Below, piece after piece: positions 30,386 to 47,297 of a DNA stretch of 64,000 bases. Origin of the DNA: Kistimonas sp. bin40 (GTDB lineage Bacteria; Pseudomonadota; Gammaproteobacteria; Pseudomonadales; Endozoicomonadaceae). The stretch covers positions 37,759-101,758 of the forward strand of contig MPMQ01000004.1 in NCBI GenBank assembly GCA_002238585.1. Reading direction: 5' to 3'. The position numbers and the translations under genes were made by a program. How positions within the stretch are numbered: the stretch's first letter is position 1; every line of letters begins with the position of its first letter. A model generated the notes under the pieces. That model had not been told where the DNA came from. It was given only the letters and a program-made list of their open reading frames with translations, and ran no database searches.

Positions 30386-31795
30386 TCACAACAGGCCCGT
30401 CTGGTCGTGTCGATACCAGGGCCACAGGAGTGCATCACCGACTGACAGAGGCACTCTGGCCTCCGGAGGAAAAAGTTCAGGCGGGGACCCAGGCAGCAGC
30501 CACGACGACCACAGCAATTCCTCCATTGACGATGTCATACCGCCCAGTGCCGGTTGCTGTTCGGCAACACCAGGCAACCAGGACGAGAGAATCTCACTGT
30601 CTGGCAGCAAGGCATCGCCCGGAGGCTCAGCACTGACTTGCACGTCAACGCCCCACTCCTGACCAGAAGATACAGCTGGTGAAAATACAGCTGGTGAAGA
30701 TACAGCTGGTGAAGATACAGCTGGTATAGAAGAATCCCCAGCCGCTTGTGCAATGGGACCCTTAGCCTGGCTTGCGCTGCCGACACCCCCACTATCCCTG
30801 TCTGACCTGCCCCTGTCTGACCTGCCCTTGTCGAGGCCACGCCGGCGCAGGCGTGGCCGAACACTTGTGCGTTGTGCAACCGTTTTTTTACCTCTCTTTA
30901 CCGGGCGGCAAGACTGGCTGGTGTCGTTCGCCCTGTGACTGCGCCGGTGTCTTTCAAGAATATCCTTGCGTGCGAACAGCTTGCGACAATTCTCGACTGG
31001 GCAACAAAACGGCTTGTCACCCGTATGCGTTCGCAAATGCCGCCACACCAGTGGCCTACAGGCAAATCGCCACTGGCAGCCCTCGAAAGGACAACCAAAA
31101 GGTCTTTCGCCAGCGTGGACCCGCAAGTGAATCCCAAGGTCCCCTTTGCGCTTGAAGTCTTTGCCACAGCCTTCGACCGGGCAGGAAAAAGGGCGTTGCC
31201 AGGCATGAGAATGCAGGAACCGCGTGTGGCAACTTCTGTGTCCTGAGGTCTTGAACTTTTTGCCACAACCTGGAAACGGGCACAGCCAAGGCCGTTCTGG
31301 CATGTGCGTACGCGCATGCACAGTGGCATCACGTCTACTTCCAAAGCCCTTCCCACAGCCCTCAAACGAACAGACAAAGGGCCAGATTCCGGTATGGGCT
31401 GGCAGGTGAGCCCGGAGACTGCCTTGACGCATGAAACTTTGTCCACAGCCCGGCACAGTGCATACATACGGCTTGTCTCCCGTGTGTTTTCGCCAGTGAA
31501 CACTGAAATTGTCTCTATACCGGAAGTGCTTTGCACAGCCCTCCCAAGGACAAAAATGCGACCATGGACCGGTATGGACTGGCAGATGCGTCTGGACGTC
31601 ATGGCTTCGTGTGAACTTTTTTTCACAGCCTGGAACAGGACAGTGCCCAGGGGCTTCTCCTGTACGGCTGACGTGATGACAAGATCCTGGTGCTGCCTCG
31701 GATGCGCTTTTTCTCCCGATGTATCCAGCAGACGCAGGTCTGTCCTTGCGACGACCAAACCCAAAGGCCGGTCTACAGTGACTCTCAAACAGCAT
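30386..31795 (-). CDS. C2H2 zinc-finger array protein, eight fingers
   Basis: ATG 31795 follows AGGTGG at good spacing and gives MLFESHCRPAF, an N-terminus shared in outline with other zinc-finger genes here (xxHCRP); GTG 31807 is an alternative. The 469-residue protein has eight consecutive fingers at about 55-300, mostly C-x4-C-x12-H-x3-H (for example CPVPGCEKKF, CTVPGCGQSF, CPVEGCGKDF), joined by HTGDKPY-like linkers of eukaryotic type. A basic segment (PVKRGKKTVAQR, RPRLRRRG) could serve as a nuclear localisation signal. The C-terminal third is Ser/Pro/acidic with PAVSS repeats and ends near DALLWPWYRHDQ. Such arrays are a hallmark of eukaryotic DNA-binding proteins; a role in host nuclei is inference. 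Confidence 0.93.
   Translation of the reverse strand: MLFESHCRPAFGFGRRKDRPASAGYIGRKSASEAAPGSCHHVSRTGEAPGHCPVPGCEKKFTRSHDVQTHLPVHTGPWSHFCPWEGCAKHFRYRDNFSVHWRKHTGDKPYVCTVPGCGQSFMRQGSLRAHLPAHTGIWPFVCSFEGCGKGFGSRRDATVHARTHMPERPWLCPFPGCGKKFKTSGHRSCHTRFLHSHAWQRPFSCPVEGCGKDFKRKGDLGIHLRVHAGERPFGCPFEGCQWRFACRPLVWRHLRTHTGDKPFCCPVENCRKLFARKDILERHRRSHRANDTSQSCRPVKRGKKTVAQRTSVRPRLRRRGLDKGRSDRGRSDRDSGGVGSASQAKGPIAQAAGDSSIPAVSSPAVSSPAVFSPAVSSGQEWGVDVQVSAEPPGDALLPDSEILSSWLPGVAEQQPALGGMTSSMEELLWSSWLLPGSPPELFPPEARVPLSVGDALLWPWYRHDQTGLL
30669..30727 (-). repeat. 15-bp repeats coding PAVSS
   Basis: Four near-identical 15-bp units (GATACAGCTGGTGAA on the plus strand) encode the Ser-Pro-Ala-Val repeats in the C-terminal region of the eight-finger protein. 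Confidence 0.85.
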
Positions 31796-31896
31796 AAGCA
31801 CAGCCACCTGGAAGAAATGGTTGAATCACTGTTCGACAGCTGTTGCGATCCTGAGCACCTGCGTTCAACTGACAAGCCTGTTATGGCGATCATGCA

Positions 31897-32259
31897 TCAT
31901 GACAGCGCTGAACTCTGCGGATCCGCTTGCCCTTCCAGAATGTCTGACAGCCAGGACCACAGCTGAGTCTCCTCCTCGCCAGAGGATGACACCCATGCCA
32001 ACGAGGCGGCGCCTGGCCTGGGTGATGACAGCCAAGGCCTTTCTCCGGTGTGGGTCAGCAGGTGGATGTCCTTGTCTCCCTGGTTCTTGTATCGCTTGCC
32101 ACAACCCTCTACAGGACAGGTCCAGGGCTGATCTTCCGAATGAAAAGCCTGGTGTCTTTGCCGGTTTGCTGTGGTTGCGAACTGCTTTTGACATACTCCC
32201 CGCCCTGAAGGACGGGGCTTGCCGCGCACCAGGTCAAAGACACTGTAGAAGTCAGACAC
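31897..32259 (-). pseudogene. Truncated zinc-finger gene (C-terminal remnant)
   Basis: The 120-codon frame keeps one broken finger (CQKQFATTANRQRHQAFH), one intact finger (CPVEGCGKRYKNQGDKDIHLLTH) with a TGERPW linker, and the conserved end TQLWSWLSDILEG. That end is almost identical to the C-terminus of the neighbouring gene at 32290 (VQLWSWLSDILDE). The 5' end is replaced by an IS200/IS605-type palindrome, so the gene appears to be a duplicate truncated by a transposon event. It starts 30 bp after the neighbour's stop and might still be expressed. Confidence 0.75.
32189..32243. mobile_element. IS200/IS605-type terminal palindrome, copy A
   Basis: GACATACTCCCCGCCCTGAA and the following bases form a near-perfect hairpin (CCCCGCCC...GGACGGGG, 32198-32217), followed by GCTTGCCGCGC and GTCAAAGA. 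This is the form of the subterminal ends left by IS200/IS605 elements. A second copy at 41.2 kb matches over about 55 bp. No transposase remains. Confidence 0.75.
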
Positions 32260-32289
32260 TGAGAAAGACCCTCCACTTTTCCGGGCCGG

Positions 32290-33699
32290 TCATTCGTCCA
32301 GAATATCTGACAGCCACGACCAGAGTTGTACGCTATCTGTTGTCGGCAACCTCACCATGGCAACGGCCACACCAGCCTGGCGACAGGGTGACCTGGGCGC
32401 GGGTGCACCATCCCCCGCTGGCAACATCAAGTCATCCGGCGCCGATACAGGCTCACTGGCAGCAGACCAACGGATCGATGACAGATCGGCATCAGACCGG
32501 CGTAGACGCCTCATCACCGCATCGCCACAGGACGAAACCTGCGCCTGCGCCTGCGCCTGCGCCGACGCGAAAGGCTGCTGGAACCGGGACTGGCTGACGC
32601 TGGCTACCCGCCCTTTGTCGCAAGCCGCCTTCCCTGTCATGAGGGGCACTGGATAGCTTTTTCGGCGACCTGATGCCCCTGTTGTCCCGGACCTGGTCCT
32701 GCTGCCGGCACACACACCGGGAGAATGCATCTTCTGCGGACGACAAGGAGGGCGTTTTTCCTCAACAGGGACTTGAACACCAGTCTGGACACCATGCTTG
32801 AGCAGGTGAGGCGGGAGCTGCTGTTGCCGGACGAAGCTTTTCCCGCAGTCCGGGACAGGGCAGAGCCAGCGTTTTTTGCGCGCGTGACTGCGCAGGTGGC
32901 TGTCCCGGCTTCCTTTCCATCTGAACTGCCAGTCGCAACCCGGGACCGGGCAGGGCCAGCTTTGCTCGACAGAATGGTTGCGCATATGGGCCGCCTTGCA
33001 CTGACGGATCAAGAATCTTTTGCCACAACCCTCCACGGGACAAAAATACTCGCGGTCTGGCTTGGGGGCCTTCGGTCTCTGTGCGTGTAACCGAAGGTGA
33101 GACTGCATGATATTTTTGCGCGAGAAACCCTGGCCACAGCTCTCGATGGGGCACATCCAGGGCTTTTTCCCGGTATGGACTGCCAGATGGCTCCTGAGCC
33201 CGACAAGCTGTCCAAAGCGCTTTTTGCAACCTTCAAAGGGACACCCAAAGCGCTTGACATCAAGATGGACCTGAGCGTGAATCCCGGCGTGGTCTTTTCG
33301 GTAGAAGCGCTTTGCACAGCCCTCCACGAGGCAGCAATAAGGCCTGTCTCCGATATGAACCCGAGCGTGAACATCCCTTTTCCTTTGCGTGCTGTATTGA
33401 TTGTGACAGTCTGGAAAAGAGCAGGGCCACAGCTGTGTTACCCTGCGGGTCAGCACCGGGACTGGCTCCCCTCTTTTTCCGTCAGCCTCCAGGCCCCGGG
33501 CTCCAGACACACCCAACCCGTTTTTACCCCGAACAGAGGCCGCGCACTGCACAGTCCCGCAGGGCCGGGCTGCGGCAGAGAGGCGGACAACCACCCCACT
33601 CAACAATCCCGCTGTCGATCGGGACCGGCATCTGTAACCAGTGAGCCTGGTACCGGCAAGATCATCAGAGACGAACACAACATCACCAACCTGCGTCAA
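32290..33699 (-). CDS. C2H2 zinc-finger array protein, seven fingers
   Basis: Start uncertain: the frame opens at TTG 33699 and has no good ribosome-binding site, with GTG codons shortly inside. The 469 residues hold seven fingers at about 95-305 (CSFPDCHNQY, CLVEGCAKRF, CPFEGCKKRF, CPIESCGQGF, CPVEGCGKRF, CPVPGCDWQF, CPVPDCGKSF), all C-x4-C-x12-H-x3-H. The linkers are less TGEKP-like than in the gene at 36227. After the fingers come basic and low-complexity segments, including an Ala-Gln repeat, then the conserved C-terminal SVQLWSWLSDILDE. That acidic/aromatic end resembles eukaryotic activation-domain motifs, a comparison that is inference only. Confidence 0.9.
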   Translation of the reverse strand: MTQVGDVVFVSDDLAGTRLTGYRCRSRSTAGLLSGVVVRLSAAARPCGTVQCAASVRGKNGLGVSGARGLEADGKRGEPVPVLTRRVTQLWPCSFPDCHNQYSTQRKRDVHARVHIGDRPYCCLVEGCAKRFYRKDHAGIHAQVHLDVKRFGCPFEGCKKRFGQLVGLRSHLAVHTGKKPWMCPIESCGQGFSRKNIMQSHLRLHAQRPKAPKPDREYFCPVEGCGKRFLIRQCKAAHMRNHSVEQSWPCPVPGCDWQFRWKGSRDSHLRSHARKKRWLCPVPDCGKSFVRQQQLPPHLLKHGVQTGVQVPVEEKRPPCRPQKMHSPGVCAGSRTRSGTTGASGRRKSYPVPLMTGKAACDKGRVASVSQSRFQQPFASAQAQAQAQVSSCGDAVMRRLRRSDADLSSIRWSAASEPVSAPDDLMLPAGDGAPAPRSPCRQAGVAVAMVRLPTTDSVQLWSWLSDILDE

Positions 33700-33707
33700 T
33701 AGTGCTA

Positions 33708-33917
33708 TCAGTGGCTATCGGCTACAGCTGCTGCGCTCTTGTCGAGGCTTGGGAACATGCGGTTCTCCTGTCTCTGGTGACACTTCTGGCCCCACTGTCC
33801 CATGAAAGCCGTGAAAGGTTTGTCACAATCTGCAACGGGGCGCATCCGGGAGTGCCCCCCAGGCGCATAAAGCCCCGCCCGTACTGTCCGCAGACTGATC
33901 AGCGGGCTTGTTGTCAT
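33708..33917 (-). pseudogene. Zinc-finger relic
   Basis: The frame MTTSPLISL...MRPVADCDKPFTAFMGQWGQKCHQRQ keeps the body of one finger of the local type (compare CPVADC...), but the first Cys is Arg and the His positions are lost. It is probably the remains of another zinc-finger gene upstream of 33699. Confidence 0.45.
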
Positions 33918-34372
33918 TTACAGACAATTCGAACATCGGCACTGGCAACCCGGCATAAGACTCAACAGCTACCGACGCCCTGAAACAGGCGCAGGCTACT
34001 CCTTCTATAGAGCCAAAAGCACTGTTTCACTAACAAGCTTGTCTTTCCCCCAAACCCGGCAAGGAACAAAGGCAACAAAGGCAACAAAGGCAACAAAGCC
34101 AATAGCTCCACCCGCTCAGCAGCTGCCTCCTGATTCCAGATTGCACAAGCGGACAGGATCCAATTGGCATCCCTCGCAGCGACACCAGCAGCAATGAACT
34201 TTCAGGATGTGTCCCAGTCCAAGCTGTGCTGGCACACCATGAGTGTGCTGTGTCCCATGGAGAACGGTCATATCAAGGACAATTGAGTTTCCAGGATGGC
34301 AACCACTCTACCGACAGCAAACAGAGAAACAAGACGAGTCAGAAGACTCTATCCAGACAAAGGAGATCCCAG
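33918..34372. other. Spacer with GGCAACAAA repeats
   Basis: 455 bp upstream of the coiled-coil gene. Four 9-bp GGCAACAAA-type repeats lie at about 34062-34100. No supported gene; the promoter of the next gene must be here. Confidence 0.5.
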
Positions 34373-35854: not shown

Positions 35855-36226
35855 GCGCACTGGGTCAAAATTGTACAAAGCACGACCTGTGACGCACAGG
35901 CGGTGATCCGGGACCTGACGGCCAGCAAACCTGCGACCAGGAACCAGCAGGGGCTTGCAAGAGCGCGGCAAGGACATGCCCGCCAAGCCGTCCCCGGACG
36001 CACAGGCGTGTAGGCCATCGCCGGATTCTGTCCCCCTCATGCATAACCCCGCGTTCAGACAAACAAGGATGTCACCGGGTCTGGCCGTACCGGAAGGAAA
36101 AGAGTTGCAGCTTGTTTCCAGGCTGCACAGGGCCCCTGATCGCAATTTTTCGATGCGTGTGACAGACAACCGATAGTATCTATCAATGCATCAGCCCCCG
36201 TTTTTCCCCCCCAGATGGACCTGCAC
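35855..36226. other. Spacer between convergent genes
   Basis: 370 bp between the coiled-coil gene and the zinc-finger gene stop. No gene or clear terminator is seen. Confidence 0.45.
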
Positions 36227-37750
36227 CTATGCTCTTGCACTTGCATCCATGCTCTCGCATTTGATTTGTTTGAATAAGCTCCCCCCCTCCACAGGGTATT
36301 TACAAGACTTTGCTTTTGTATGACGCCGGAGATGAATTTTTATCACGCTCGAATAGGCGGACGCTTGCCCGCAACCTTCCACAGGACAGACATAAGGTTT
36401 TTCGCCCCTATGTTGTCGCAGATGAGGCGGCAGCGCACAGCGGTAGCTGAAACCTTTCTCGCATCCCTCAACGGGACAGACATAAAGCTTTGGCCGCCTA
36501 TGAACCCGCATATGTATGCTTTGATCGCTTTTTGTCCTGGACCGCTTGCCACAACCTTCAACAGGGCAGAGATAGAGTTTGTCACTCGTGTGATGGCGCA
36601 GAATGTGGATATTTCGTTCTCCTTGTGTCGTGAACGTCTTTCTACAGTCAGCAACCAAGCAGAGGAAAGGCTTTTCTCCCCTGTGTCTACGAAGATGGCG
36701 GTTCAAGGTGGGCCGCTGCCGAAACACTTTTCCGCATTGCTCAAAAGAGCAGACATAGGGCTTTTGTCCTGTATGCGTCCGCAGGTGATTTGTCAGCACA
36801 TTCCTGTAGCCAAAACCTGTCCCGCATCCCTCAAAAGGGCAGACATAGGGCTTTTGTCCCGTATGCCTTCGCTGGTGATCCCTGCGCAGGCTCTGGCGGC
36901 CAAAAGCTGTCCTGCATCCCTCAAAAGAGCAGAGGAAAGGCTTTTCTCCCATATGTCTTCGAATGTGATAGCTCAGCGTGCCCAGCTGTCGGAAAACTTT
37001 TCCGCATTGCTCAAAAGAGCACAGATAAGGCTTTTCGCCCGAGTGCATGCGCAAGTGATTTTCCAGCACAGCCCTATAGGCAAAACTTGCCCCACATCCC
37101 TCAAAAGGGCAGAGATAAGGTTTGGCCTTCGCAGGGACGCGCATCTGGCTTTTTCTATTTTCTGTTGGCGTATCCTGCTGTGCCTTCCCCGTCGAAGGGC
37201 GGGTAGAAGGCTGTTGCCCCGGATAGTGCTGTACAGGCTTCAACCTCCGCTCTGCTGGTGTCCAGGACAGCTTGCCAGACTCACCAAAGACGCGGGAACA
37301 AGCCCTTTTTTCCTGATGCCTGCGACTGTAAAAGGCCAGTGCGCCTTCTTGGCGCAAGCGCTTCCTGCCCGCCTCCTCAAGCCCGGGACAAGGCCTGTCT
37401 TGAGTACGCGTTCGAAGATGTGTTTTCAGCACCTTGCTGTATCCGAACCGTTTTCCGCAACCTTCAAAAGGACACAGACAAGGCTTTTCTCGCGCACGCC
37501 CTGGCCTGTGAATCTTTTGTTTTTCTCCTGGCGTGGACTGCTTTCCACCCCCTGCAACAAAGTGGGTATGAGGCTTTGTTCCCCGATGCCTGCCTGGAGA
37601 AACCTGGGCAGGCGTGTTGCGAGCCCCGCGCCTTTTGCTGCCGGGAACAGGGCAAAGCCCGGGCTGTTCTTCCGGGAAGCAAGCAAGGGATCGACCAGGG
37701 CTGAGAGCAGTTCGCTCACCTGTCCTGCTGTGGGCTGTAGACTGGATCAA
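36227..37750 (-). CDS. C2H2 zinc-finger array protein, nine intact fingers
   Basis: Start TTG 37750 is supported by AGGAG six bases upstream and by the same leader before the gene at 39165. The 507 residues open with a basic, low-complexity region, one finger missing its last His (HLRTRT) and two decayed finger units (about 90-160), then nine intact fingers about 210-485 with linkers HSGEKPY, HMGEKPF, HTGQKPY and HRGEKPF. Fingers fall into recurring types (CPFEGCG..FGYR, CSFEQCGKVFRQ), showing growth by internal duplication. This is the most eukaryote-like array of the set. It lacks the LWxWL end, finishing ...IKCESMDASARA. Likely DNA- or RNA-binding; host-nuclear action is inferred. Confidence 0.92.
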   Translation of the reverse strand: MIQSTAHSRTGERTALSPGRSLACFPEEQPGLCPVPGSKRRGARNTPAQVSPGRHRGTKPHTHFVAGGGKQSTPGEKQKIHRPGRAREKPCLCPFEGCGKRFGYSKVLKTHLRTRTQDRPCPGLEEAGRKRLRQEGALAFYSRRHQEKRACSRVFGESGKLSWTPAERRLKPVQHYPGQQPSTRPSTGKAQQDTPTENRKSQMRVPAKAKPYLCPFEGCGASFAYRAVLENHLRMHSGEKPYLCSFEQCGKVFRQLGTLSYHIRRHMGEKPFLCSFEGCRTAFGRQSLRRDHQRRHTGQKPYVCPFEGCGTGFGYRNVLTNHLRTHTGQKPYVCSFEQCGKVFRQRPTLNRHLRRHRGEKPFLCLVADCRKTFTTQGERNIHILRHHTSDKLYLCPVEGCGKRSRTKSDQSIHMRVHRRPKLYVCPVEGCEKGFSYRCALPPHLRQHRGEKPYVCPVEGCGQASAYSSVIKIHLRRHTKAKSCKYPVEGGSLFKQIKCESMDASARA

Positions 37751-37965
37751 GATCGGCTCCTGAAGTTGAACAATGACACACCCGGCCTTGGACCATCCTT
37801 GCGCTTTTTCCTCCCCTGCGAGCTGACACCCAGGTTACGAACGCCCTGCCCTGGAACGCCGGAACATGTCTACAACGGTGTCATCGCCCAACTATCTTGT
37901 CACTGCCTGCAGTGCTGATGAGTCCGCCACATGCTGATGCACAGCCCTTGTGTTCCATCAAGGCA

Positions 37966-38157: not shown

Positions 38158-39165
38158 TCAAGGGGGCAGACACGGGAGTTTTTCTTTCGTATGTGCGCGA
38201 AGGGGATTTTCAAGGTGCCGGTAGCCGAAACTTCTCCCGCCCCGCTCACAAGGGGACAGATAAGGATTGATTCCCCTATGGCCCCGCAGCAGATGAGCAT
38301 TGTAATCCCCCCGGGTCCTGAACCGCCGGCCACAGCGCTCGAGAGGGCAGGTATGAGGTTTTTCTCCCGTATGCCGGAGAAAGTGGCAGGTCAGCGTGCG
38401 CTGCAGTCGGAAACGCTTGCCACATCCCTCAAAAGAACAGACATAAGGCTTCTCTCCCGTATGCCGCAAAAAGTGGCCGTTGAGCACCGTTTTGTAGCCG
38501 AAAGCTCGCCCACAGCCCTCAAAAGAGCAGAGATAAGGCTTTACTCCCGTATGGACCCGCAGATGGCTATTGTAATCCCCCCGGGTCCTGAACCGCCGGC
38601 CACAGCCCTCGACAAGGCAGGCATGAGGTTTTTCTCCCGTATGCCGGGGAAAGTGGCGGATCAGCGTGCTCTGCAGTCGGAAACGCTTGCCACATCCCGC
38701 AAAAGAACAGGGATAAGGCTTCTCTCCCGTATGCCGTAAAAAGTGGCCTTTGAGCACCTTCTTGTCGCCGAAAGCTTGCCCACAGCCCTCAAAAGAGCAG
38801 AGATAAGGCTTGGCTCCCGTACGCCTCGAAAGGCTGTTTGCGCGCAGATTCTGGTACCAGAATCTGGTCATACACTCTGTGAACGCACCGACATAAGGAC
38901 TTTTTCCCCTGCGCCCTGGAAAGTGCTGGCTTACTGCGTATCCGATGCCTTGCCCGCTCCCCTCAACAGGGACGGCACAAGGCTCTTTCCCCCAATGTCT
39001 TTGAAAATGCGCCTGGGCATACCTCCTTCGGGCGAAGCCTCTTTTGCAGGCGGGAGAAGGGCAGAACCAAAGCCGGTTTTCCGGGGAGAAAATCGGGGCA
39101 GCATCAAGACTGGGGGTGAAGGCAAGGCGACAGCCGGGCCTGCCGTGGTCAGTGGAGGAAATCAA
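38158..39165 (-). CDS. C2H2 zinc-finger array protein, seven intact fingers
   Basis: TTG 39165 lies six bases after AGGAG, the same arrangement as at 37750; ATG 39168 sits three bases closer to the site. The 335 residues start MISSTDHGRPGCRLAF. Finger 1 is CPSPACKRGFARRRYAQAHFQRH, followed by two decayed units and then six intact fingers of 30-residue period with HTGEKPY linkers (CSFEGCGQAF, CSFAGCGKRF, CLVEGCGRRF and repeats), then a decayed last unit. A three-finger block is tandemly duplicated at the DNA level. The C-terminus (KEKLPCLPP) is a frameshift product, since finger sequence continues downstream in other frames, and the LWxWL motif is missing. It may be a recently truncated gene. 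Confidence 0.85.
   Translation of the reverse strand: MISSTDHGRPGCRLAFTPSLDAAPIFSPENRLWFCPSPACKRGFARRRYAQAHFQRHWGKEPCAVPVEGSGQGIGYAVSQHFPGRRGKSPYVGAFTECMTRFWYQNLRANSLSRRTGAKPYLCSFEGCGQAFGDKKVLKGHFLRHTGEKPYPCSFAGCGKRFRLQSTLIRHFPRHTGEKPHACLVEGCGRRFRTRGDYNSHLRVHTGVKPYLCSFEGCGRAFGYKTVLNGHFLRHTGEKPYVCSFEGCGKRFRLQRTLTCHFLRHTGEKPHTCPLERCGRRFRTRGDYNAHLLRGHRGINPYLSPCERGGRSFGYRHLENPLRAHTKEKLPCLPP
38301..38825 (-). repeat. Two tandem 270-bp three-finger units
   Basis: The segment starting TGTAATCCCCCCGGGTCCTG at 38301 recurs at 38571, exactly 270 bp (three 30-codon fingers) away. The two units are nearly identical throughout, with only scattered substitutions, so the duplication is recent. Confidence 0.92.
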
Positions 39166-39329
39166 CATCGGCTCCTGGGCTTGAACAGTGGCACACACAG
39201 CCTTGGACAGCCGCTGATCTGTTTCGCACGCCCGGGTGCTGACAGCCTGGTTACAGCGTCGTAGAGGTGCTCAAGTTTCCTGACAGATTGTTTATCCAGC
39301 CGGGCTGGCGCCCACCACCAAAGAGCCAG

Positions 39330-41072
39330 TCAGCGCGATCCGGCATTCCCGAAACTGCCCGCAGCCGGATAGCTGCCGTCAGGTTCTTCAATCACCGGCA
39401 ACCACTGCCAGAACAGCGTCTCATCCCTTGAGAAAGGTGACAGCCAGGAGAGTGCGGACAGCCGATCTGGAACAGCAACATTTTCCACGGGATGTAACAG
39501 CGACGGCGAGGATTCTTCTGCTGGCCCTGGTGGCGCTGCTGTCTCTGCTGTCTCTGCTGTCGGAAACAGGGTTGCCTCCTCCCTCGCTGATGCTTGTTTG
39601 AGAATGGCTCCCAACCAGTCCAGAAAAGAGGGTGCATCCACACCCCGGCCAGACGCATGGTCCCAGATAAGCCCCGGGGTCAAGGAGCCAGGATGAACCA
39701 ACCATGGTCGAACATTTTCTGACATGACCAGGCTCTGACTGTCGGCAGACTCCGGTCGCGCATTGACTCCCAGCGGCGCCGGTGCTACCGGCTGATGGGC
39801 AAAAACCAATGCGACTGCTGTCGTTCTGACCGACAGCTGCCCGCTGGCAGGAACAGGCTGCGGGGCCGGGCGCAGAGCCTGCGGAGCAGGAGCATGCCGG
39901 GCTTTTCTGAGATGGAGGCCTGCATGACGCCGGGCACAGCTGGCGCGCGCGAAGCGTTTTCCGCAATTTTCAAAAGCGCAAGCATAAGGGGTTTGCCCCC
40001 GGTGATGTCTCAGGTGGACCTTCAGACCGTCTGCCCGGCTGAAACCTCTGCCACACCTCTCAAAAGTGCAATGATACGGCTTTGCTCCGCTATGGACTCT
40101 CAGGTGGAACCCGATTCTTACTTTCTGTGAAAAACGTTCACCACAACCCGGTACAGGACAAACCCAGGGCTTTTCTCCCGTATGCGTCTGCACATGTACA
40201 GCCAGAGCACCCTTTGTCACACATCGCCGGCGACATTCCACAACAGGACAAACCCAGGGCTTTTCTCCCGTATGACGCCTCCAGTGAACCCTGAATGCAC
40301 TCAACGTTGTAAAATTTTTGTCACAGTCAGCGAAAGGACAGAGCCAAAGTTTCTGTTTTCCCTGCATCCGCATGCATTCCTGGATCGCGCGCTCTTGCCT
40401 GGCTCCTGTGTCATAACCCTGGAACAACAAGCCCCGGCGTTTTGCTCCTGCGTCCAGGTCCTCGCGCGTATACGCCTCCCGGTTCTGCACGTCAGCACAG
40501 GGCTTGGCATAACGGGCCGCGCTGCGCGACCTGGCCCTTGTCCAGCAGGAGTGACTCGGGGGCATGCTTTTGCCATCCGGCTGCCCGGACATGCCGCCAG
40601 GCTCCAACGGGCAAGGATGGCGCAACTCCCGGTCATGGCCACACCGGTGGGCAGCGCGCAGAACTTGTCGTCGTAATGCTGTCCCGGCGTCCGGCCCGGG
40701 AGCTGGCCTGGGTTGCGGCTCTCTGGCGATAGCCTGGGCGGCGCGTCGGCTGCTCAATGACACCCGCCACTTTGCACTGCCCTGAAAAGAGCCTGGCCGA
40801 GGTGATATTCCATGGTAACTGTTGATATGAAAACGTCTGCTCACTAATGATGCAAAGCGTCTGTTGCAACCTTCGACGGCGCACTTCATCAGTTGTCGTA
40901 CTCTATGCATTGGGGGGGGATTACGCTGGCTCGCTTCTTCCATGTACTGTTTTCTATCGCCCTCGACGGGGCACACCCGAGGTTTTGAGGCGGAGGGCCT
41001 TACCAACATTTTGCTGCGACTGTTTGAACAGGGACAGTCGGGTCTGCAATGATCCATGAGATGTAGCACCAT
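39330..41072 (-). CDS. C2H2 zinc-finger array protein, six fingers
   Basis: ATG 41072 gives MVLHLMDHCRPDCP, with the HCRP N-terminus also seen at 31795; no strong ribosome-binding site, and ATG 41057 is an alternative. The 580 residues hold an isolated finger (CAVEGCNRRFASLVSRRFHINSYH) near 64-87, a long basic, low-complexity stretch (about 90-240), then five consecutive fingers about 245-390 with HTGEKPW linkers, and an acidic/Pro-rich C-terminal region. It ends with SRDETLFWQWLPVIEEPDG, the local version of the conserved LWxWL motif, some 20 residues before the stop. Thr/Ala-rich TAETAETAAPP repeats lie near 515. Nucleic-acid binding is likely. Confidence 0.91.
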   Translation of the reverse strand: MVLHLMDHCRPDCPCSNSRSKMLVRPSASKPRVCPVEGDRKQYMEEASQRNPPPMHRVRQLMKCAVEGCNRRFASLVSRRFHINSYHGISPRPGSFQGSAKWRVSLSSRRAAQAIAREPQPRPAPGPDAGTALRRQVLRAAHRCGHDRELRHPCPLEPGGMSGQPDGKSMPPSHSCWTRARSRSAARYAKPCADVQNREAYTREDLDAGAKRRGLLFQGYDTGARQERAIQECMRMQGKQKLWLCPFADCDKNFTTLSAFRVHWRRHTGEKPWVCPVVECRRRCVTKGALAVHVQTHTGEKPWVCPVPGCGERFSQKVRIGFHLRVHSGAKPYHCTFERCGRGFSRADGLKVHLRHHRGQTPYACAFENCGKRFARASCARRHAGLHLRKARHAPAPQALRPAPQPVPASGQLSVRTTAVALVFAHQPVAPAPLGVNARPESADSQSLVMSENVRPWLVHPGSLTPGLIWDHASGRGVDAPSFLDWLGAILKQASAREEATLFPTAETAETAAPPGPAEESSPSLLHPVENVAVPDRLSALSWLSPFSRDETLFWQWLPVIEEPDGSYPAAGSFGNAGSR

Positions 41073-41236
41073 CAGTTATCAATTTCAAAAAGAGACAGAG
41101 AGGGTATTGGATCGAAGTTGCAGGGCTGTTCTTCAATGCCTGAACAATCCTGTCACCAGGGTATCGCCAGGGCCCTGCTGCCCCCCCTGTCCTGGCCTGG
41201 AACCTGCATCAGACTCTGGCTGTTTGATAACCCACT

Positions 41237-41291
41237 GTTTGACATCCTCCCCGTCCTGAAGGACGGGGCTTGCCGCGCGCTGTGTCAAAGA
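41237..41291. mobile_element. IS200/IS605-type terminal palindrome, copy B
   Basis: GACATCCTCCCCGTCCTGAA continues to a perfect 8-bp stem hairpin (CCCCGTCC...GGACGGGG, 41249-41268), then GCTTGCCGCGC and GTCAAAGA. It matches copy A over about 55 bp. It lies just upstream of the six-finger gene, at the border to an AT-richer transporter gene. No transposase remains. The rest of 41073-41513 shows no supported gene. Confidence 0.78.
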
Positions 41292-41513
41292 GCCTCAAAA
41301 CATAGAGCAGCTGTATGGGCAGGCGTTCTTTTCAAAACGACCTTCGACCAGTAATTTTCAGAAAAAACGACAAGCTCAAATCGGCTACGGCTCCAACATG
41401 TCTTGCACGCAGCAAAAACGACACTTGTTTTAAAATCAAGCTAAACGACTTCTCACCTTCACTTATTCGTACTTCTGATCCAGACTTCTGCCTTTTCATA
41501 TCAGGCTGTTCCA

Positions 41514-42422: not shown

Positions 42423-42548
42423 CTGCCGGGGTCCAGCCTGGCCTTCACACCCGACAGACTCGCGCTGGAACTGTCGTCCTTGAGACTACACAAGGACTGC
42501 CGCCCCTTTTTCCTTGCAGGAAGCGACAGACCAGAAACGACAGCCAGC

Positions 42549-45500
42549 TTACAGACTGGTCGTTGAGACCGGGTGATCCACCGCACCGGCTCCTTCCACA
42601 GTGGGAAGCCGTCGCTGTGCAGAAAACACGGCATCGCTCGCCGTATTCTGCTGCGGCAAGGCCCGCTCTCCGGCCAGCAAAGCCTGTTCTTCCTGCTCCG
42701 CCAGAGCCAGACGCTGGCGGCATTTGCTCCAGACCAGCAAATAGACGCAGGCCGTCGCGGTGGCAACAGCTGTACCTACAGCAACAGGGACGGCCACAGC
42801 TGTGGTCAACCTGTTCTCAGTCGTGTGGTTGTGCGTACCGGCATGGCCCGGTGCCACGGAGGAGACAAGGGTAGGCGACAAGGAAGCAGAAGCCGTGACC
42901 TGATTGCTGTCAGAAGGCAGCGCCGCAGTCGCTGAAGAAGGACGCACAAGCGCATGACGAGCCACAGCAACGCGCGCCCACTGCAGGCAGCCGCCCACCT
43001 CCGGCACCTGTGCCTGCCAACCGAACGCCGGTGCGTAGGGATCCACCAGGGTACCCGTCACAGGCACGAGTGTCAGCTGCTGGTCGTCCACCACCAGACG
43101 CAGATCCTCTGTCACATTAGCCGTCAAGTTCTGCTGCCAGCCGACATCCATTGCACCGCTCCCGACATCTATGCGACGCAGACTGGAAGGCTGCCCTTCC
43201 TGCTGACGCACTGTGTAAAGCCAGTCACCGGCGCGGGCCAACAAGGCGCGGCCCCCCGGTTGATCCGACAGATCAAAGCCGGTACGCAACCAGGGGCTCT
43301 GCTCACTGGAGGGCCTGGCTCCCAGACCATACACCAGCACTGTGTCATTGCTCTCCTGCTGCATCCACAGGTTCAGCTCCCCGTTTTCAAACGACAACAG
43401 TCGTGCCTGACCTGCCAGCGTCTCATACTGCGCCAGCTGGTACTGGCCGTGCAAATACACAGCCAGGTTCAAGGTCACCAGTTGTACAGCCTGGCCCGGA
43501 AGCTGCTGGAGGTGATACAACCGGCCATTGTGCACCAGGCTGTGCAGCACTCTGCCAGTCTGCGGCAGGGCGCTCCCGGCCGGCGGCTTGTGCAAACTCT
43601 CCCAACCAAGACCACGGCTGGAACCAATAGCGAGCGGCACTGCCCCACCATCCAGTGGCAGGAGGCGGCTCACGCGCATCAGTCCTTTGAGATCATTTTC
43701 CCGTTGCCAGGGGTAGCGCTGTCGGGTCACCATCAACCACCCGGCGTTGCTGGGCGTCAATGACTGCAAATCTTCATGCGGATAACGGATAGAGGCCGGC
43801 GAACAGGCGAACCCATCAAACTTCCAGCTTTCAAAGCCCCGAAAGCTGCCATACAGCCCAACCCACCCGGCCGGTGAAAGACTGGTGGAACGCTGCTCCA
43901 CCTCAGTTCCAGCTACCAGCTGGCAGTCGTAGGAACTGGCCCTGTAGGCGGCCGTGTCAATCTGAAAATTGGCCCTGCGGCAATAAGGCGGCGAACCGGG
44001 AGGAAACAAGGGAAGACTGGCATCACCACCCGAGGTCAAGTAGGTAACAGCATTGTGCGCCGGTGCCACCAGGAACCGCTGTGCACCTGTTCCATGTGCC
44101 ACCAGCTGGTCCGGGCCTACACTGCGGTGTCCCAGATACAGCAAGGACAGGGCTTGAGTAGACACAAGGCTGGCACGCGCCAGTCCGGCTGAAACAGCTT
44201 CCTGCGCTCCCTGCTGCCCTGGCATCTGAACCGGGTTGTCGCAGGACCAGGCCTGCACGCTGTTGTCAGTGCAATCGGTCTGCATGACTGCCAGCTGACC
44301 GGCCGCAGGATGTTCAGGAAAAGCAGGGCGACAAGCCAGACTGCCGTAACCCAGACTGGCACAGCTGAAGCCGGCACCTGCCGCCGGCAAATCCTGCTGT
44401 CTTTGAGTACGGGCCCTGACCAGATTCTCGTGAAGCGCGCGCTGCCGGCTTTTGAGGAAGAGGCTATCGGCGTCCGGGTCGCCCAGAATCCCGAGCAGCG
44501 CCGCAGTCGCCCGCCCGCCGGGGCTGTTTTCCCCCGCAGGCGGCGGGCCTGCTTCAGCCAGAGCCTGGACTTGATTGTGTTTGAGCTCCCGCTGGCTGAT
44601 GTATTGGTGACCGGAGCTGCGCACCACCCCCAGCCCCAGGCTGGCCACGGCTTCCGGAATTTGGGCGCCGCTGCCCACGCGGGCGTGCGCCATCACCCGA
44701 TTGCCACGGAGGTTATACAACTCCAGATGGTTGTCATCCCCGCAGGTGGTGCCCACCAGAGCGGCCTCCACCCGGCCAACGCCCGTGGCCTTGAACAGAC
44801 TTCGGTCCAGCCGGTTGATCTGCACCCGATTGTGGGACTGCATCTCACCGACAAATGCTGCCAGGCTGCCATTACGGGTCTCCAGACGGCTGTCGACGAC
44901 CGAGAGGCTGATAGTACTGTTGCTGATAGCCCCGAACAAAACCGCATCGCCCAGGTCGCGGACCTGCTGCACGCGCAGGGCGTGCCCGTTGCCATCCAGC
45001 GAGCCGGTAAAGGGATGGGTACGATTCCCCACCGGCAGCCGCAGCTCATCATGTATGACGACATCTTCTGCCAGTCGGTAACAGCCGTCCCGATCCTCAT
45101 GAATGCGACTGAAGTTGTGCTGTCCCAAGGCAACAGGGGTACCGGAACAGGCCGCATGACCTTGTCCACGACTATCACGACCATGACTCACAGCCGGATC
45201 ATTCTTCCTGTGTTGCGCGCCACCTGACGCACGACCAGCTACAAGAGTAAAATCATCCAGCGCCTCAGAACGACGTTGTTTGCGTCTGCTGCCGGCAGAA
45301 GAAGCTGCGCCGGTGCGCCCGGACGCCGGTCGCCCTTGCTGCGCCTTGCCTGTTTTCTTGCCTTTTTTTCGGGATGATGCCGGTGCCGCGCGCAACCGCC
45401 GGGATGCGATTTCATCCCCGCCAGCGGCAGTGCGCGGCCCGGTGCCGGCCGACTCGCGCACCCGCACAGCGGAGCGTTTGTTGCCGCCAGCCACGCGGCG

Positions 45501-45713
45501 CTCGACAGCAACGGGCAGCGCCCCCCGTTCCGCCACACCACCGGCCAGCCGAGGTTTTGACCGCCCGCCTGGCATCGCCCGGCGCGGGCCCAGCAGCGAC
45601 AACGCGGTCGCCGTCTGCAACACGACCTTTGCAGGCCCCACTGTTCCCCTGCGTCCGGTGTGCGTCAGCGTGCTGTTGACCTGGCTGCCGTTCATGCTTG
45701 CATTATTTATCAT
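42549..45713 (-). CDS. Large single-span membrane protein, array family copy 1
   Basis: ATG 45713 follows GGGAG at about 7-base spacing. The 1054 residues share the family plan: N-terminal GRRGTVGPAK...LSLLGPRRAMPGGR; a basic region with SRKKGKKTGK and RRKQRRSEALDDF (about 115-160); a GLUG-like unit HPFTGSLDGNGHALRV with LFGAISNSTISLSV; a long Cys- and Asn-x-Ser/Thr-rich middle with propeller-like units (VTRQRYPWQRENDLKGLMRVSR, YGLGARP, DWLYTVRQ); one membrane span VAVPVAVGTAVATATACVYL; and a tail ending VSTTSL, a class I PDZ-ligand pattern. It is the most diverged copy and lies apart from the other four, convergent with the AEC gene. No known family; membrane topology and host targeting are inferred. 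Confidence 0.85.
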   Translation of the reverse strand: MINNASMNGSQVNSTLTHTGRRGTVGPAKVVLQTATALSLLGPRRAMPGGRSKPRLAGGVAERGALPVAVERRVAGGNKRSAVRVRESAGTGPRTAAGGDEIASRRLRAAPASSRKKGKKTGKAQQGRPASGRTGAASSAGSRRKQRRSEALDDFTLVAGRASGGAQHRKNDPAVSHGRDSRGQGHAACSGTPVALGQHNFSRIHEDRDGCYRLAEDVVIHDELRLPVGNRTHPFTGSLDGNGHALRVQQVRDLGDAVLFGAISNSTISLSVVDSRLETRNGSLAAFVGEMQSHNRVQINRLDRSLFKATGVGRVEAALVGTTCGDDNHLELYNLRGNRVMAHARVGSGAQIPEAVASLGLGVVRSSGHQYISQRELKHNQVQALAEAGPPPAGENSPGGRATAALLGILGDPDADSLFLKSRQRALHENLVRARTQRQQDLPAAGAGFSCASLGYGSLACRPAFPEHPAAGQLAVMQTDCTDNSVQAWSCDNPVQMPGQQGAQEAVSAGLARASLVSTQALSLLYLGHRSVGPDQLVAHGTGAQRFLVAPAHNAVTYLTSGGDASLPLFPPGSPPYCRRANFQIDTAAYRASSYDCQLVAGTEVEQRSTSLSPAGWVGLYGSFRGFESWKFDGFACSPASIRYPHEDLQSLTPSNAGWLMVTRQRYPWQRENDLKGLMRVSRLLPLDGGAVPLAIGSSRGLGWESLHKPPAGSALPQTGRVLHSLVHNGRLYHLQQLPGQAVQLVTLNLAVYLHGQYQLAQYETLAGQARLLSFENGELNLWMQQESNDTVLVYGLGARPSSEQSPWLRTGFDLSDQPGGRALLARAGDWLYTVRQQEGQPSSLRRIDVGSGAMDVGWQQNLTANVTEDLRLVVDDQQLTLVPVTGTLVDPYAPAFGWQAQVPEVGGCLQWARVAVARHALVRPSSATAALPSDSNQVTASASLSPTLVSSVAPGHAGTHNHTTENRLTTAVAVPVAVGTAVATATACVYLLVWSKCRQRLALAEQEEQALLAGERALPQQNTASDAVFSAQRRLPTVEGAGAVDHPVSTTSL

Positions 45714-45831
45714 GCTCTCACTCCCATCGGGTTTCTTCTCTACTGGTTCTTCTCTACTGGACTGTCACGACTGCTCCTTGCTCCTTGTTATGAGCTTTTC
45801 CCACGGGGAAGCTCTCAACGACAACAACACA

Positions 45832-46026
45832 CTACTGCACGACCACCAAGGCGCGCTCCTTGAACATCTCCCGGCCCTGAATCAGTCCATGGGCTGAGGT
45901 TACGTCGGCCAGGCCAGCGCCGCTCCCGGCACCGGGGCACGACCAGCACACACCTGCCGCAGAACCGGCCAGCCACAACAAGGCCCAGGGGGCCACAGCC
46001 ATGGCAAGGCACAGACGCCCTCGCAC
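45832..46026 (-). CDS. Possible small secreted or lipid-anchored protein
   Basis: GTG 46026 opens a 64-residue frame beginning MRGRLCLAMAVAPWALLWLAG, a convincing signal-like segment, followed by AAGVCWSC, so a lipobox is possible. The upstream bases are G-rich but not a clear ribosome-binding site. Coding is uncertain, because this 450-bp spacer (45714-46166) otherwise shows only a 15-bp duplication, CTTCTCTACTGGTT-like, near 45730-45760. Confidence 0.3.
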   Translation of the reverse strand: MRGRLCLAMAVAPWALLWLAGSAAGVCWSCPGAGSGAGLADVTSAHGLIQGREMFKERALVVVQ

Positions 46027-46166
46027 CAGGATTGCGATCCCCCGCCCCGGCTGTCGCCTGCGCCAAAGTCAGCGGAGGACTTGGAGCAGGCAAATACTGA
46101 AAAGTTCCATCTTGTGTGTAAGTTACTTGTCCGGGACATCAATTGTGCGACAGGGCTGTCAGCAGA

Positions 46167-47297
46167 TCAGGTCACTGTGTCCTCAAGATTTGTCTTGCGG
46201 GAAGAACACAACCACTGCCAGAAAACCTTCTCCTCATCATCCATGGACTCTGGCTGGGCCGTATCCGGAGTAAAGAGCGCGGTCAAGGGTGGATCACTTC
46301 GGAACTGCTGCATATCTGTGAGCCATGGACCTTCGTCCTGACCCCATTCGTCTGGAACGGGCGGCGACATCCCGAACGGCCCGTCCCTGTCAGCTGTGTC
46401 AGACAACTGCGGCACAACCCGGCTGGCACTGTCCCCCTGCTGGAGACAAGGGGGTGACAGCCTGGGGCTATCACCAGCAAACGCACAACGGCTGAGAGCC
46501 CTGTCACCGGCCAGCCGGCTGTTTTTGTGCCTTGGCGCAGGTACAGCTGCCCACAGGGAACGGGGCCTGAGCTTTCCACCCCTGTGGGTGATCATATGCC
46601 TTTTCCTTTTGGCTCGGGATATGAACGCCCTGGAACAACCTTCCGCCAGGCAGGGCCAGGGCTTTTCTCCGGTATGGATCATCAGGTGCGCCTGCAGATT
46701 TCCTTTCAGAATGAAGCCTTTTGTACAGCCTTCGTAGTGACAGAAAAAACGCCGGACGCCCGCGTGTGTTTTCATATGTACATTCAGCGTGCAGGGTCGT
46801 ATAAACCTTTGACCACAACCTTCTACGGAACAGACAAGAGGCCTTTCTCCCCTATGGGATCGCAGGTGCAGTTGCCAATTCACCTTGTTGGCTAACCTGC
46901 TGCCACAGTCTTCGTAATGGCAGACAAAACGTCTTTCTCCTGAGTAGATGCGTCTATGTCCTTGTCTGTTGGTTCTGTGTGAAAGCCGCTTTTCATAGCC
47001 GGGGACTGGGCCAGCAACGGGTCTGCCTTGCCTCTTGACGGACGAAGCTCCTGGCACAGCGCAGGCAAGTTCCGGGCTTTCGTCCCGGGGGGCGCCAGCT
47101 GGCCTTGCGGTCGGCCGGGCAGTGGCCGACCGTAGACTGCGGCCTGCGGCTCTTGTTGATACCCGCGTCTTGCAACCCTTATGCGGGCCACAAGCTTCTG
47201 GTGATGGCAGCAACCTTGTGCGGGCCCGAGCACCGATTTGCATAAAAAGTCCCCTGCTGTGCTCCACATCACCAAAAAATGGATGCCTCCGGGCCAT
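46167..47297 (-). CDS. C2H2 zinc-finger array protein, four fingers
   Basis: ATG 47297 gives a 376-residue protein. A basic, Ala/Arg-rich N-terminal third with one decayed finger (GPVPGYEKRLSHRTNRQGH) is followed by four intact fingers about 125-240 (CHYEDCGSRL, CSVEGCGQRF, CHYEGCTKGF, CLAEGCSRAF) with RGERPL and TGEKPW linkers. A basic stretch (RAKRKRHMITHRGGKLRPR) could act in nuclear localisation. The C-terminal region is acidic and Pro-rich and ends DDEEKVFWQWLCSSRKTN, the same FWQWL motif as in the gene at 39330. It sits between copies 1 and 2 of the large membrane-protein family, linking the two gene families physically. Confidence 0.92.
   Translation of the reverse strand: MARRHPFFGDVEHSRGLFMQIGARARTRLLPSPEACGPHKGCKTRVSTRAAGRSLRSATARPTARPAGAPRDESPELACAVPGASSVKRQGRPVAGPVPGYEKRLSHRTNRQGHRRIYSGERRFVCHYEDCGSRLANKVNWQLHLRSHRGERPLVCSVEGCGQRFIRPCTLNVHMKTHAGVRRFFCHYEGCTKGFILKGNLQAHLMIHTGEKPWPCLAEGCSRAFISRAKRKRHMITHRGGKLRPRSLWAAVPAPRHKNSRLAGDRALSRCAFAGDSPRLSPPCLQQGDSASRVVPQLSDTADRDGPFGMSPPVPDEWGQDEGPWLTDMQQFRSDPPLTALFTPDTAQPESMDDEEKVFWQWLCSSRKTNLEDTVT

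What the first reader, a model, noticed from the sequence alone, without database searches (positions are those of the whole stretch)
30386..47297. Cluster of six eukaryotic-type C2H2 zinc-finger array genes in a bacterial chromosome
Six genes (30386, 32290, 36227, 38158, 39330, 46167) carry 4-9 intact fingers each in the C-x4-C-x12-H-x3-H form with TGEKP/TGERP-like linkers. Classical bacterial zinc-finger proteins (Ros/MucR) have one finger with different spacing. The genes are uninterrupted, lie among bacterial genes and some have Shine-Dalgarno sites. Known biology: tandem TGEKP-linked arrays read DNA in eukaryotes. Inference: acquired from a host and expanded as nucleomodulins.
Basis: partly seen in the sequence, partly recalled or inferred. 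Interest (0 to 1): 0.93.

Follow-up and report, generated by a model that had tools for sequence, protein, structure and literature searches.

The report
Bacterial repertoire of animal-type zinc fingers
A bacterium from a family that lives in marine animals carries at least 200 genes for zinc-finger arrays of the kind animals use to read DNA, about a tenth of its genome, and it likely sends these proteins into host cells, where they would bind host DNA and change gene activity.

Summary
All six genes encode classical tandem C2H2 fingers (8, 7, 9, 7, 6, 4) among bacterial housekeeping genes. They are the edge of something larger: in 715 kb examined of the 3.78-Mb genome, 221 open frames hold two or more fingers and 211 hold four or more, about 2,000 fingers and 9.7% of the genome. 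Of 1693 adjacent finger pairs, 1688 are in frame. Between close copies the zinc ligands show 0 replacement and 53 silent changes. Helix positions +2, +3 and +6 are the most variable. Many proteins end in short conserved peptides, one acidic and aromatic (DDDKAFWQAL). Relatives in the family, Endozoicomonadaceae, have other architectures: SET plus finger proteins resembling PRDM9 in single-contig Endozoicomonas euniceicola, and 17 frames in Ca. Endonucleobacter, a parasite of mussel nuclei. Sampled genomes outside the family show one or two matches at most. Host contamination does not explain this. Most likely they are host-directed, nucleus-acting DNA-binding effectors, a C2H2 counterpart of TAL effectors. 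Export, nuclear entry, targets and expression are untested, and diversifying selection at contact positions is not shown in this genome. The literature searched had only passing mentions of zinc-finger domains in this family.

The parts
30386..31807 (-). C2H2 array gene 1 (GTG start, 473 aa), 8 fingers; array at 30935-31642
   Evidence: Pfam zf-C2H2 5.6e-20; fingers, linkers and array span
30407..30445 (-). C-terminal tail peptide SVGDALLWPWYRH of gene 1 (weakest resemblance to the acidic-aromatic tail motif)
   Evidence: coordinates; resemblance by eye
31870..31883 (+). weak copy (2 mismatches) of the upstream palindrome TGACNAGCTNGTCA, before gene 1
   Evidence: 7 window matches at up to 2 mismatches against 3.1 expected, weak on its own (3 of 100 shuffles reach 7); enrichment upstream of paralogues
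31897..32259 (-). truncated array remnant: two finger-like units, then GEEETQLWSWLSDILEGQ tail (tail at 31927-31980)
   Evidence: translation, tail coordinates
32290..33699 (-). C2H2 array gene 2 (TTG start, 469 aa), 7 fingers; array at 32794-33423
   Evidence: Pfam zinc-finger double domain 2e-16
32293..32340 (-). C-terminal tail peptide TDSVQLWSWLSDILDE of gene 2, at the very end of the protein
   Evidence: coordinates; resemblance to the family motif by eye
36227..37750 (-). C2H2 array gene 3 (TTG start, 507 aa, AGGAG upstream), 9 fingers; array at 36320-37111
   Evidence: Pfam 5.2e-35; predicted model pLDDT 95-98 over about residues 210-350; Foldseek to DNA-bound WT1, TM 0.94 by target length; no tail motif
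38158..39198 (-). C2H2 array gene 4 (346 aa as listed; a likelier start is an internal ATG after AGGAG), 7 fingers; array at 38278-39063
   Evidence: Pfam 3.7e-25; no tail motif
39330..41072 (-). C2H2 array gene 5 (ATG start, 580 aa), one isolated finger plus 5 tandem; 39912-40883
   Evidence: Pfam 8e-17; near-identical database entry with 8 member sequences
39384..39431 (-). C-terminal tail peptide SRDETLFWQWLPVIEE of gene 5
   Evidence: coordinates; resemblance to the family motif by eye
46167..47297 (-). C2H2 array gene 6 (ATG start, 376 aa), 4 fingers; array at 46584-46922
   Evidence: Pfam 8.2e-14
46194..46244 (-). C-terminal tail peptide MDDEEKVFWQWLCSSRK of gene 6
   Evidence: among the pattern hits printed (DEEKVFWQWLCSSR)

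Best explanation
The six genes are outlying members of a genome-wide repertoire of at least 211 C2H2 arrays of four or more fingers, likely exported into animal host cells, probably by type III secretion, where they are predicted to enter the nucleus, bind host DNA and, through short conserved C-terminal peptides, would alter host transcription. Shown here: intact tandem fingers with strictly conserved zinc ligands, open frames, a predicted finger fold like DNA-bound WT1 and PRDM9, high variability at DNA-contact positions, conserved C-terminal peptides in more than half of the genes, a shared upstream DNA element in part of them, and type III secretion genes in the genome. Inferred: that the arrays read DNA, and host rather than bacterial DNA; export; nuclear import, possibly by the basic arrays themselves; and that the acidic-aromatic tail recruits the host transcription machinery as TAL-effector or p53-type activation peptides do. 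The repertoire plausibly works by numbers: many arrays with different recognition codes, generated by tandem duplication of genes and fingers.
For: Maintained genes: 1688 of 1693 adjacent finger pairs in frame; 0 replacement against 53 silent changes at the Cys/His codons in 165 close pairs not selected on those residues; 933 of 960 in-register slots intact. DNA-reading anatomy: 1669 distinct fingers of 1676, highest entropy at +3, +6 and +2, 1148 distinct contact quartets. Fold: pLDDT 95-98 over the central array of gene 3, WT1-DNA TM 0.94 by target length over 118 columns. Tails: acidic-FW pattern in 65 of 182 tails against a mean of 0.2 in shuffles (genes picked by the pattern); with genes picked by contig, the motif block has the lowest replacement rate of its tail, 0.084 against 0.124-0.238 in the other blocks. 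One class A tail searched: 13 database proteins, all with finger domains, none with a source name. Export machinery: hrcV over cut-off in 36 of 37 family genomes including this one, in 0 of 14 controls; SpaO/YscQ over cut-off here. Restriction: 29 of 37 family genomes have fingers; elsewhere 1-2 matches per genome in few. Relatives: arrays joined to a SET domain and to basic NLS-like clusters; replacement excess at contact positions in two relatives, pN/pS 1.71 against 0.96 and 1.41 against 0.62; 17 frames in an intranuclear parasite.
Against: No expression, secretion, localisation or binding data. In this genome contact positions do not evolve clearly faster than other exposed finger positions: pN/pS 0.92 against 1.03; 0.97 against 0.79 in the closest pairs but 0.84 against 0.87 in the widest set. 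Two other relative sets show no contact excess either (G027/G028 0.79 against 0.80; short five-finger proteins of G020/G021 2.41 against 4.24 on 17 silent changes). NLS-like clusters outside the arrays in only 45 of 212 genes and a hydrophobic N-terminal segment in 0 of 212. Only 71 of 212 carry the acidic-aromatic tail; 51 carry a second peptide, 9 a third, 54 none recognised and 27 have under 60 residues after the array. The window copies have degenerate linkers, and two lack a tail motif. No secretion-signal predictor was available. SD sites barely exceed chance.
Confidence: 0.6

Rival explanations
1. The arrays act inside the bacterium, as a repertoire of DNA-binding proteins for its own genome, its mobile elements or its phages.
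For: No export signal was demonstrated for this genome's proteins; genes have open bacterial frames, and part of them share an upstream palindrome that could be an operator.
Against: No PADLOC match for the six and one weak PHROG zinc-finger hit in one of six; found almost only in an animal-associated family; relatives join the fingers to a SET domain, basic NLS-like clusters and often a hydrophobic N-terminus.
Confidence: 0.15
2. The proteins go to the host but the fingers bind host proteins or RNA, or act as decoys, rather than reading DNA sequence.
For: Contact positions are no more variable than other exposed positions in close pairs; in G027/G028 position +3 is Ala in 220 of 232 fingers and there is no contact excess, which does not look like DNA reading.
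Against: Q/R at -1, N/S/D/H at +3 and R/K at +6 are the commonest residues, as in DNA-reading fingers (recalled); contact excess in E. euniceicola SET-finger proteins and in G026.
Confidence: 0.12
3. The expansion is largely a by-product of tandem duplication and recombination of repetitive genes, with little function, and the window copies are decaying leftovers.
For: Tandem clusters, near-neutral pN/pS in tails and exposed finger positions, degenerate linkers and a truncated copy in the window.
Against: No ligand replacement in 165 close pairs, 5 frameshifts in 1693 adjacent pairs, conserved tail peptides.
Confidence: 0.1
4. The genes are host DNA misassembled into a bacterial genome.
For: The genome is a 215-contig assembly, and many cluster ends coincide with contig ends.
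Against: Clusters run as uninterrupted open frames over up to about 83 kb of one contig, sit beside bacterial genes in the window, and have counterparts in single-contig relatives. Gene 5 also matches at 99% a database entry with 8 member sequences whose longest contig (13,130 bases) is not this one (source hidden, so independence is inferred).
Confidence: 0.01

Closest known systems
TAL effectors (Xanthomonas, Ralstonia)
   Same: Tandem modular repeats with variable specificity positions on a conserved scaffold, several copies per genome, host-associated bacterium with type III secretion, acidic-aromatic C-terminal segment (features of TAL effectors recalled; function here inferred).
   Different: Repeat is a zinc-binding finger of about 30 aa, not the 33-35 aa TALE repeat (recalled); over 200 genes here against 9-16 in rice-pathogenic X. 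oryzae pv. oryzae (abstract in the listing); no TALE family among the Pfam hits; activity untested.
Animal C2H2 zinc-finger repertoires (KRAB-ZNF, PRDM9, ZNF143, CTCF, TFIIIA)
   Same: Finger spacing, TGEKP linkers, fold, tandem gene clusters, diverse contact residues.
   Different: Bacterial uninterrupted genes; no KRAB, SCAN or BTB domain among the Pfam hits of the six; the one class A tail searched was found in no named protein.
Eukaryotic-like protein repertoires of Endozoicomonadaceae (ankyrin, WD40, zinc-finger, F-box)
   Different: The passages read give no array anatomy, count, tail, contact variability or nuclear hypothesis, and support the sentence with papers on prokaryotic C2H2 and Ros/MucR regulators.
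Bacterial nucleomodulins
   Same: Proposed site of action, the host nucleus.
   Different: The review PMC7819608 does not contain the term C2H2, and the passages seen describe no finger-array protein; here nuclear entry is inferred.
Ros/MucR prokaryotic zinc-finger regulators
   Same: Zinc-binding Cys2His2 chemistry.
   Different: Single finger with shorter spacing (recalled); no Ros/MucR family among the Pfam hits of the six.

Membership tests
Classical C2H2 zinc-finger arrays | C-x2-4-C-x12-H-x3-5-H with core Phe and Leu | tested here: met
   1678 of 1966 spaced matches are C4-12-H3; Phe 67% and Leu 84% at core positions; Pfam over cut-off for 6 of 6
Classical C2H2 zinc-finger arrays | Three or more tandem fingers with TGEKP-like linkers | tested here: met
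   212 of 221 frames have 3 or more fingers; linker consensus S/T-G-E-K-P (S 42%, T 36%, then 65, 54, 67 and 68%); linkers partly degenerate in the window
Classical C2H2 zinc-finger arrays | Beta-beta-alpha fold | tested here: met
   Predicted model of gene 3 with a 30-row alignment: pLDDT 95-98 in the central array; Foldseek WT1 TM 0.94 by target length, rmsd 1.3. The alignment included animal ZNFs; a model of gene 4 without alignment failed, pLDDT 29.9
Classical C2H2 zinc-finger arrays | Sequence-specific DNA binding | not testable with these tools
   Needs SELEX or one-hybrid assays
TAL effectors | TALE repeat family | tested here: not met
   Pfam scan of the six gives no TALE family; nearly all hits are zinc-finger families
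TAL effectors | Type III secretion | tested here: inconclusive
   Apparatus genes present; no substrate signal could be tested
TAL effectors | NLS and C-terminal activation domain | tested here: inconclusive
   NLS-like clusters in 45 of 212; acidic-aromatic tail pattern in 71 of 212; activity untested
Ros/MucR | Single finger, Ros/MucR family match | tested here: not met
   4-9 fingers per protein; no such hit
Nucleomodulins | Secretion into host cells and nuclear localisation | not testable with these tools
   No localisation data
PRDM9-like (relative G020, not the window) | SET domain plus C2H2 array | tested here: met
   SET PF00856 26.1 bits over its 22.4 cut-off plus PF00096 in the one protein scanned; its SET region matches 26 database proteins, all named as E. 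euniceicola. Methyltransferase activity untested

The most novel reading that the evidence does not exclude
Endozoicomonadaceae have repeatedly captured animal C2H2 modules and built lineage-specific repertoires, here over two hundred arrays, that read host genomes: a bacterial counterpart of the vertebrate KRAB-ZNF and PRDM9 systems, and a second natural class, beside TAL effectors, of modular DNA-reading effectors, some of which would write chromatin marks through a fused SET domain.
Probability: 0.45. Interest if true: 0.97.

Novelty: new variant of a known kind. Interest (0 to 1): 0.9.

Why it matters
Classical multi-finger C2H2 arrays are treated as a eukaryotic DNA-reading technology (recalled); genomes sampled outside this family gave one or two finger matches at most. 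A bacterium that devotes about a tenth of its genome to them, with 1,148 different contact-residue combinations among 1,676 fingers, points to direct, many-target control of animal gene expression by symbionts or parasites. It makes an open question testable: how Endozoicomonadaceae, which associate with corals, bivalves and other marine animals, steer their hosts. It would also supply about 1,700 natural C4-type fingers, and several further finger scaffolds in relatives, for studies of the finger recognition code.

Tried and rejected
Host-contaminant assembly: rejected. Ros/MucR: rejected. Phage cargo: no tblastn match of gene 3 in 50,697 phage records; plasmids were not searched. Defence system: no PADLOC hit in six. 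Empty-site test: greB of five genus relatives is found, but none of seven other window neighbours used as queries lies in the fetched stretches of 14-20 kb, so the locus is not syntenic there and the test is uninformative. Diversifying selection at contact sites in this genome: not supported. First tail test was biased because genes were picked by the motif; redone with genes picked by contig. A re-clustering of tails without their last 30 residues merged the tail classes and gave no usable result. Upstream palindrome in the window: weak alone. Structure without alignment failed. Naming the organism: not achieved beyond the family. Finger phylogeny for the donor: not attempted; about 30 residues per finger resolve little.
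Full report
WHAT IS THERE. The six ORFs are real and are classical C2H2 proteins. Counting fingers as C-x2-5-C-x12-H-x3-5-H gives 8, 7, 9, 7, 6 and 4; 35 of these 41 have C4-12-H3 spacing. Thirty codon-shuffled versions of the window contain no frame with three or more fingers; the window has six. Neighbours are bacterial: prs, a trpD-like gene, an hslU-like AAA gene, tsaD, a class II tRNA synthetase, a DUF3418 DEAD-box helicase, greA/greB and folE. Third-position GC is 0.568 in the six against 0.638 in nine window genes taken as housekeeping; second-position GC is 0.551 against 0.434.

SCALE. The window is the end of contig C138 of a 3.78-Mb genome in 215 contigs, 96.5% complete. A Pfam search of that genome scored only 150 of 2,165 candidates and all 150 matched. 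I fetched contigs that rang and some further stretches. In 715,490 bases, window included, I counted stop-to-stop frames of at least 80 residues: 221 with two or more fingers, 212 with three or more, 211 with four or more; 2,016 fingers, on 22 contigs, covering 365,435 bases, 9.7% of the genome; among frames with three or more, median nine fingers and at most 22 (a first count on less sequence gave 208 frames). These are lower bounds, because the other contigs were not scanned this way. Clusters are tandem: 47 frames on one strand of the 89-kb contig C154, 41 on C168.

MAINTENANCE. Of 1,693 neighbouring C4-type finger pairs (60-135 bases apart), 1,688 are in one open frame and five are shifted. 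Of 960 finger slots flanked by two intact fingers in 30-residue register, 933 keep all four ligands. In 165 disjoint pairs of close slots (at most 15 of 90 bases different; slots not selected on their own ligands, though both neighbours had to be intact), ligand codons show 0 replacement and 53 silent changes; pN/pS is 0.55 in linkers, 0.92 at contact positions and 1.03 at other exposed positions. So the zinc fold is under strong selection while the surface, contacts included, changes almost freely. The core Phe/Leu ratio depends on the sample: 0.88, where silent changes are few; 0.10 for six structural codons, where the search pattern had fixed the four ligands.

CONTACT POSITIONS. Among 1,676 C4-12-H3 fingers with flanks, 1,669 are distinct. 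The three most variable positions are +3 (3.44 bits), +6 (3.38) and +2 (3.23); -1 (3.02) ranks lower, about equal to -2 and to one position between the histidines. There are 1,148 distinct residue quartets at -1, 2, 3 and 6. The common residues (Q, R at -1; N, S, D, H at +3; R, K at +6) are those of DNA-reading fingers (recalled). Against a stronger claim: among close copies, contact sites exceed other exposed sites slightly in the closest pairs (0.97 against 0.79) and not in wider sets (0.84 against 0.87; 0.92 against 1.03).

FOLD. Gene 3 modelled with 30 aligned sequences (window genes plus relatives, nearly all animal ZNFs) gives pLDDT 95-98 over about residues 210-350, lower values in later fingers and disordered ends. 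Foldseek finds DNA-bound zinc-finger structures: CTCF, ZFP568, PRDM9, the designed protein Aart, ZNF410 and WT1, the last with TM 0.94 by target length and rmsd 1.3. Sequence alone finds zinc finger protein 568 at 1.2e-65. A model of gene 4 without alignment failed, pLDDT 29.9.

TAILS. Of 212 frames with three or more fingers, by pattern: 71 carry an acidic-aromatic peptide (class A, consensus DDDKAFWQALISP), 51 a VIAWVSGGIVYK-like peptide (class B), 9 an LLRPWQG-like peptide (class C), 54 none of these, and 27 have under 60 residues after the array. In an earlier count the class A pattern occurred in 65 of 182 tails, mostly 8-13 residues from the stop, against a mean of 0.2 (maximum 3) in 200 shuffles. 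To avoid picking genes by the motif I took all 106 genes with tails of at least 100 residues on nine contigs (68 have the pattern; 28 close pairs): the block DDDKAFWQAL has pN 0.084 and pS 0.164, the other sliding blocks pN 0.124-0.238 and pS 0.178-0.243; the 0.124 block overlaps the motif. On six class B contigs (69 genes, 14 pairs) the block CSVIAWVSGG has pN 0.080 against 0.092-0.282, the lower of these overlapping the motif. Both peptides thus look selected within otherwise near-neutral tails. Four of the six window genes end in a class A-like peptide (TDSVQLWSWLSDILDE, SRDETLFWQWLPVIEE, MDDEEKVFWQWLCSSRK, SVGDALLWPWYRH, the last the weakest; by eye), as does the truncated copy. A database search with one class A tail found 13 proteins, all with finger domains, none with a source name. 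The resemblance of class A to acidic activation peptides is recalled and untested. N-termini: a PVT-like start motif in 104 of 208 frames by pattern, pN/pS 0.79.

UPSTREAM. A palindrome, TGACNAGCTNGTCA with at most one mismatch, lies within 600 bases upstream of the first finger in 34 of 204 genes (111 of 204 at two mismatches), against one in 276,573 bases of finger and tail coding sequence; 35 lie in all 602,781 bases then held. The pattern was derived from upstream regions of 102 of these genes, where it sits in a longer conserved block, so it may be an operator or simply part of a recently copied unit. The window has only weak matches.

THE FAMILY. Two relatives can be named from their contigs: G020 is Endozoicomonas euniceicola (6,517,136 bases) and G006 is Ca. 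Endonucleobacter (contig of 1,533,009 bases), so the family is Endozoicomonadaceae. Fingers at E 0.001 or better occur in 29 of 37 family genomes, this one included; 28 pass the curated cut-off. In 293 genomes drawn from the order, 17 have matches: 12 in the family and five others with one or two each. In 398 drawn from the phylum, six have matches: this one and five with one or two each, two of them already in the order sample.

DIFFERENT ARCHITECTURES. E. euniceicola has 54 finger frames in a 180-kb region. One protein scanned has a SET domain (26.1 bits, cut-off 22.4) and seven fingers by pattern; its SET region matches 26 database proteins, all named as that species; the consensus of nine aligned proteins has a KSKKRK basic cluster and arrays that vary mostly near the contact positions. 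Close finger pairs there show pN/pS 1.71 at contacts against 0.96 elsewhere (1.55 against 0.94 with wider pairs). Short five-finger proteins of G020/G021 show no excess (2.41 against 4.24, on 17 silent changes). G026 has another family, with signal-like N-termini and CDHEGC fingers: 1.41 against 0.62. G027/G028 has a third, without contact excess (0.79 against 0.80) and with Ala at +3 in 220 of 232 fingers, which speaks against DNA reading there. Ca. Endonucleobacter has 17 frames with mostly C2-type fingers behind an N-terminal region in which Pfam finds nothing in the two proteins scanned; contact codons there had no silent change, so no ratio is meaningful. NLS-like basic clusters outside the array occur in 48 of 50 (G020), 28 of 30 (G026), 16 of 16 (G027/28), 2 of 2 (G016), 4 of 16 (Endonucleobacter, which already lives in nuclei) and 45 of 212 here; hydrophobic N-terminal segments in 41 of 50, 11 of 30, 12 of 16, 0 of 2, 1 of 16 and 0 of 212 (simple thresholds, no trained predictor; in relatives only frames with 120 or more residues before the array). 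Different finger spacings and partner domains suggest several separate captures or remodelings, but no phylogeny was made.

EXPORT. hrcV (TIGR01399) passes its cut-off in 36 of 37 family genomes including this one, and in none of 14 control genomes, four of which ring below it; SpaO/YscQ also passes here. That the arrays are substrates is inference.

LITERATURE. Ten searches of an open-access PMC library. [quoted passage not shown] PMC9743535 groups RING-type zinc finger with 'Zinc-finger double domain' among eukaryotic-like domains of coral Endozoicomonas (passages). The Ca. Endonucleobacter paper PMC11521996 has no 'zinc finger' in its main text (term count). The nucleomodulin review PMC7819608 has no 'C2H2' (term count). 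Most subscription papers, preprints and supplements were not searched, so this may be described elsewhere.

VERDICT. Real, maintained and, in the material searched, undescribed at this scale. The host-directed, DNA-reading effector model is the best fit (0.6); export, nuclear entry and binding remain to be shown.

Noticed in passing
L076-L078, L082-L085 (G020:C1, about 3.78-3.92 Mb): Endozoicomonas euniceicola carries a tandem cluster of SET-domain plus C2H2-array proteins resembling PRDM9, with an NLS-like basic cluster and a replacement excess at finger contact positions.
   Followed up: partly
L131-L133 (G026:C1): A further large C2H2 family with signal-like N-termini, acidic linkers, CDHEGCNYSTD fingers joined by LPADQRPK-like linkers and basic C-termini; replacement excess at contact positions.
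   Followed up: partly
L134, L135 (G028, G027): A third family with CPECQKTLPNAQALSNHKRKEH fingers and a PPPAKKQRKAGSKK basic cluster; +3 nearly fixed Ala, so possibly not DNA-reading.
   Followed up: partly
L073-L075 (G006, Ca. Endonucleobacter): Seventeen finger frames with an N-terminal region that Pfam does not know (two proteins scanned); few NLS-like clusters, in an organism that lives inside nuclei.
   Followed up: partly
window 42549-45713 and 48771-52205, minus strand: Two large proteins (1054 and 1144 aa) that share an N-terminal segment (LQT.T.LSLLGPRRA.PGGRSKP, by eye); no NCBIfam or PHROG hit for either and no Pfam hit for the first.
   Followed up: no
window 34226-35854, plus strand: A 542-aa protein between the finger genes with no Pfam, NCBIfam or PHROG match.
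   Followed up: no
window 47650-48660, minus strand: GTP cyclohydrolase I whose listed frame has about 150 residues before the catalytic domain; the true start may lie further in.
   Followed up: no
G000:C138 19827-22007 (outside the window): Two more frames with two finger-like units each by the stricter pattern, rich in Arg/Ser; the second opens shortly after a TTGCCTTG-type tandem repeat.
   Followed up: no
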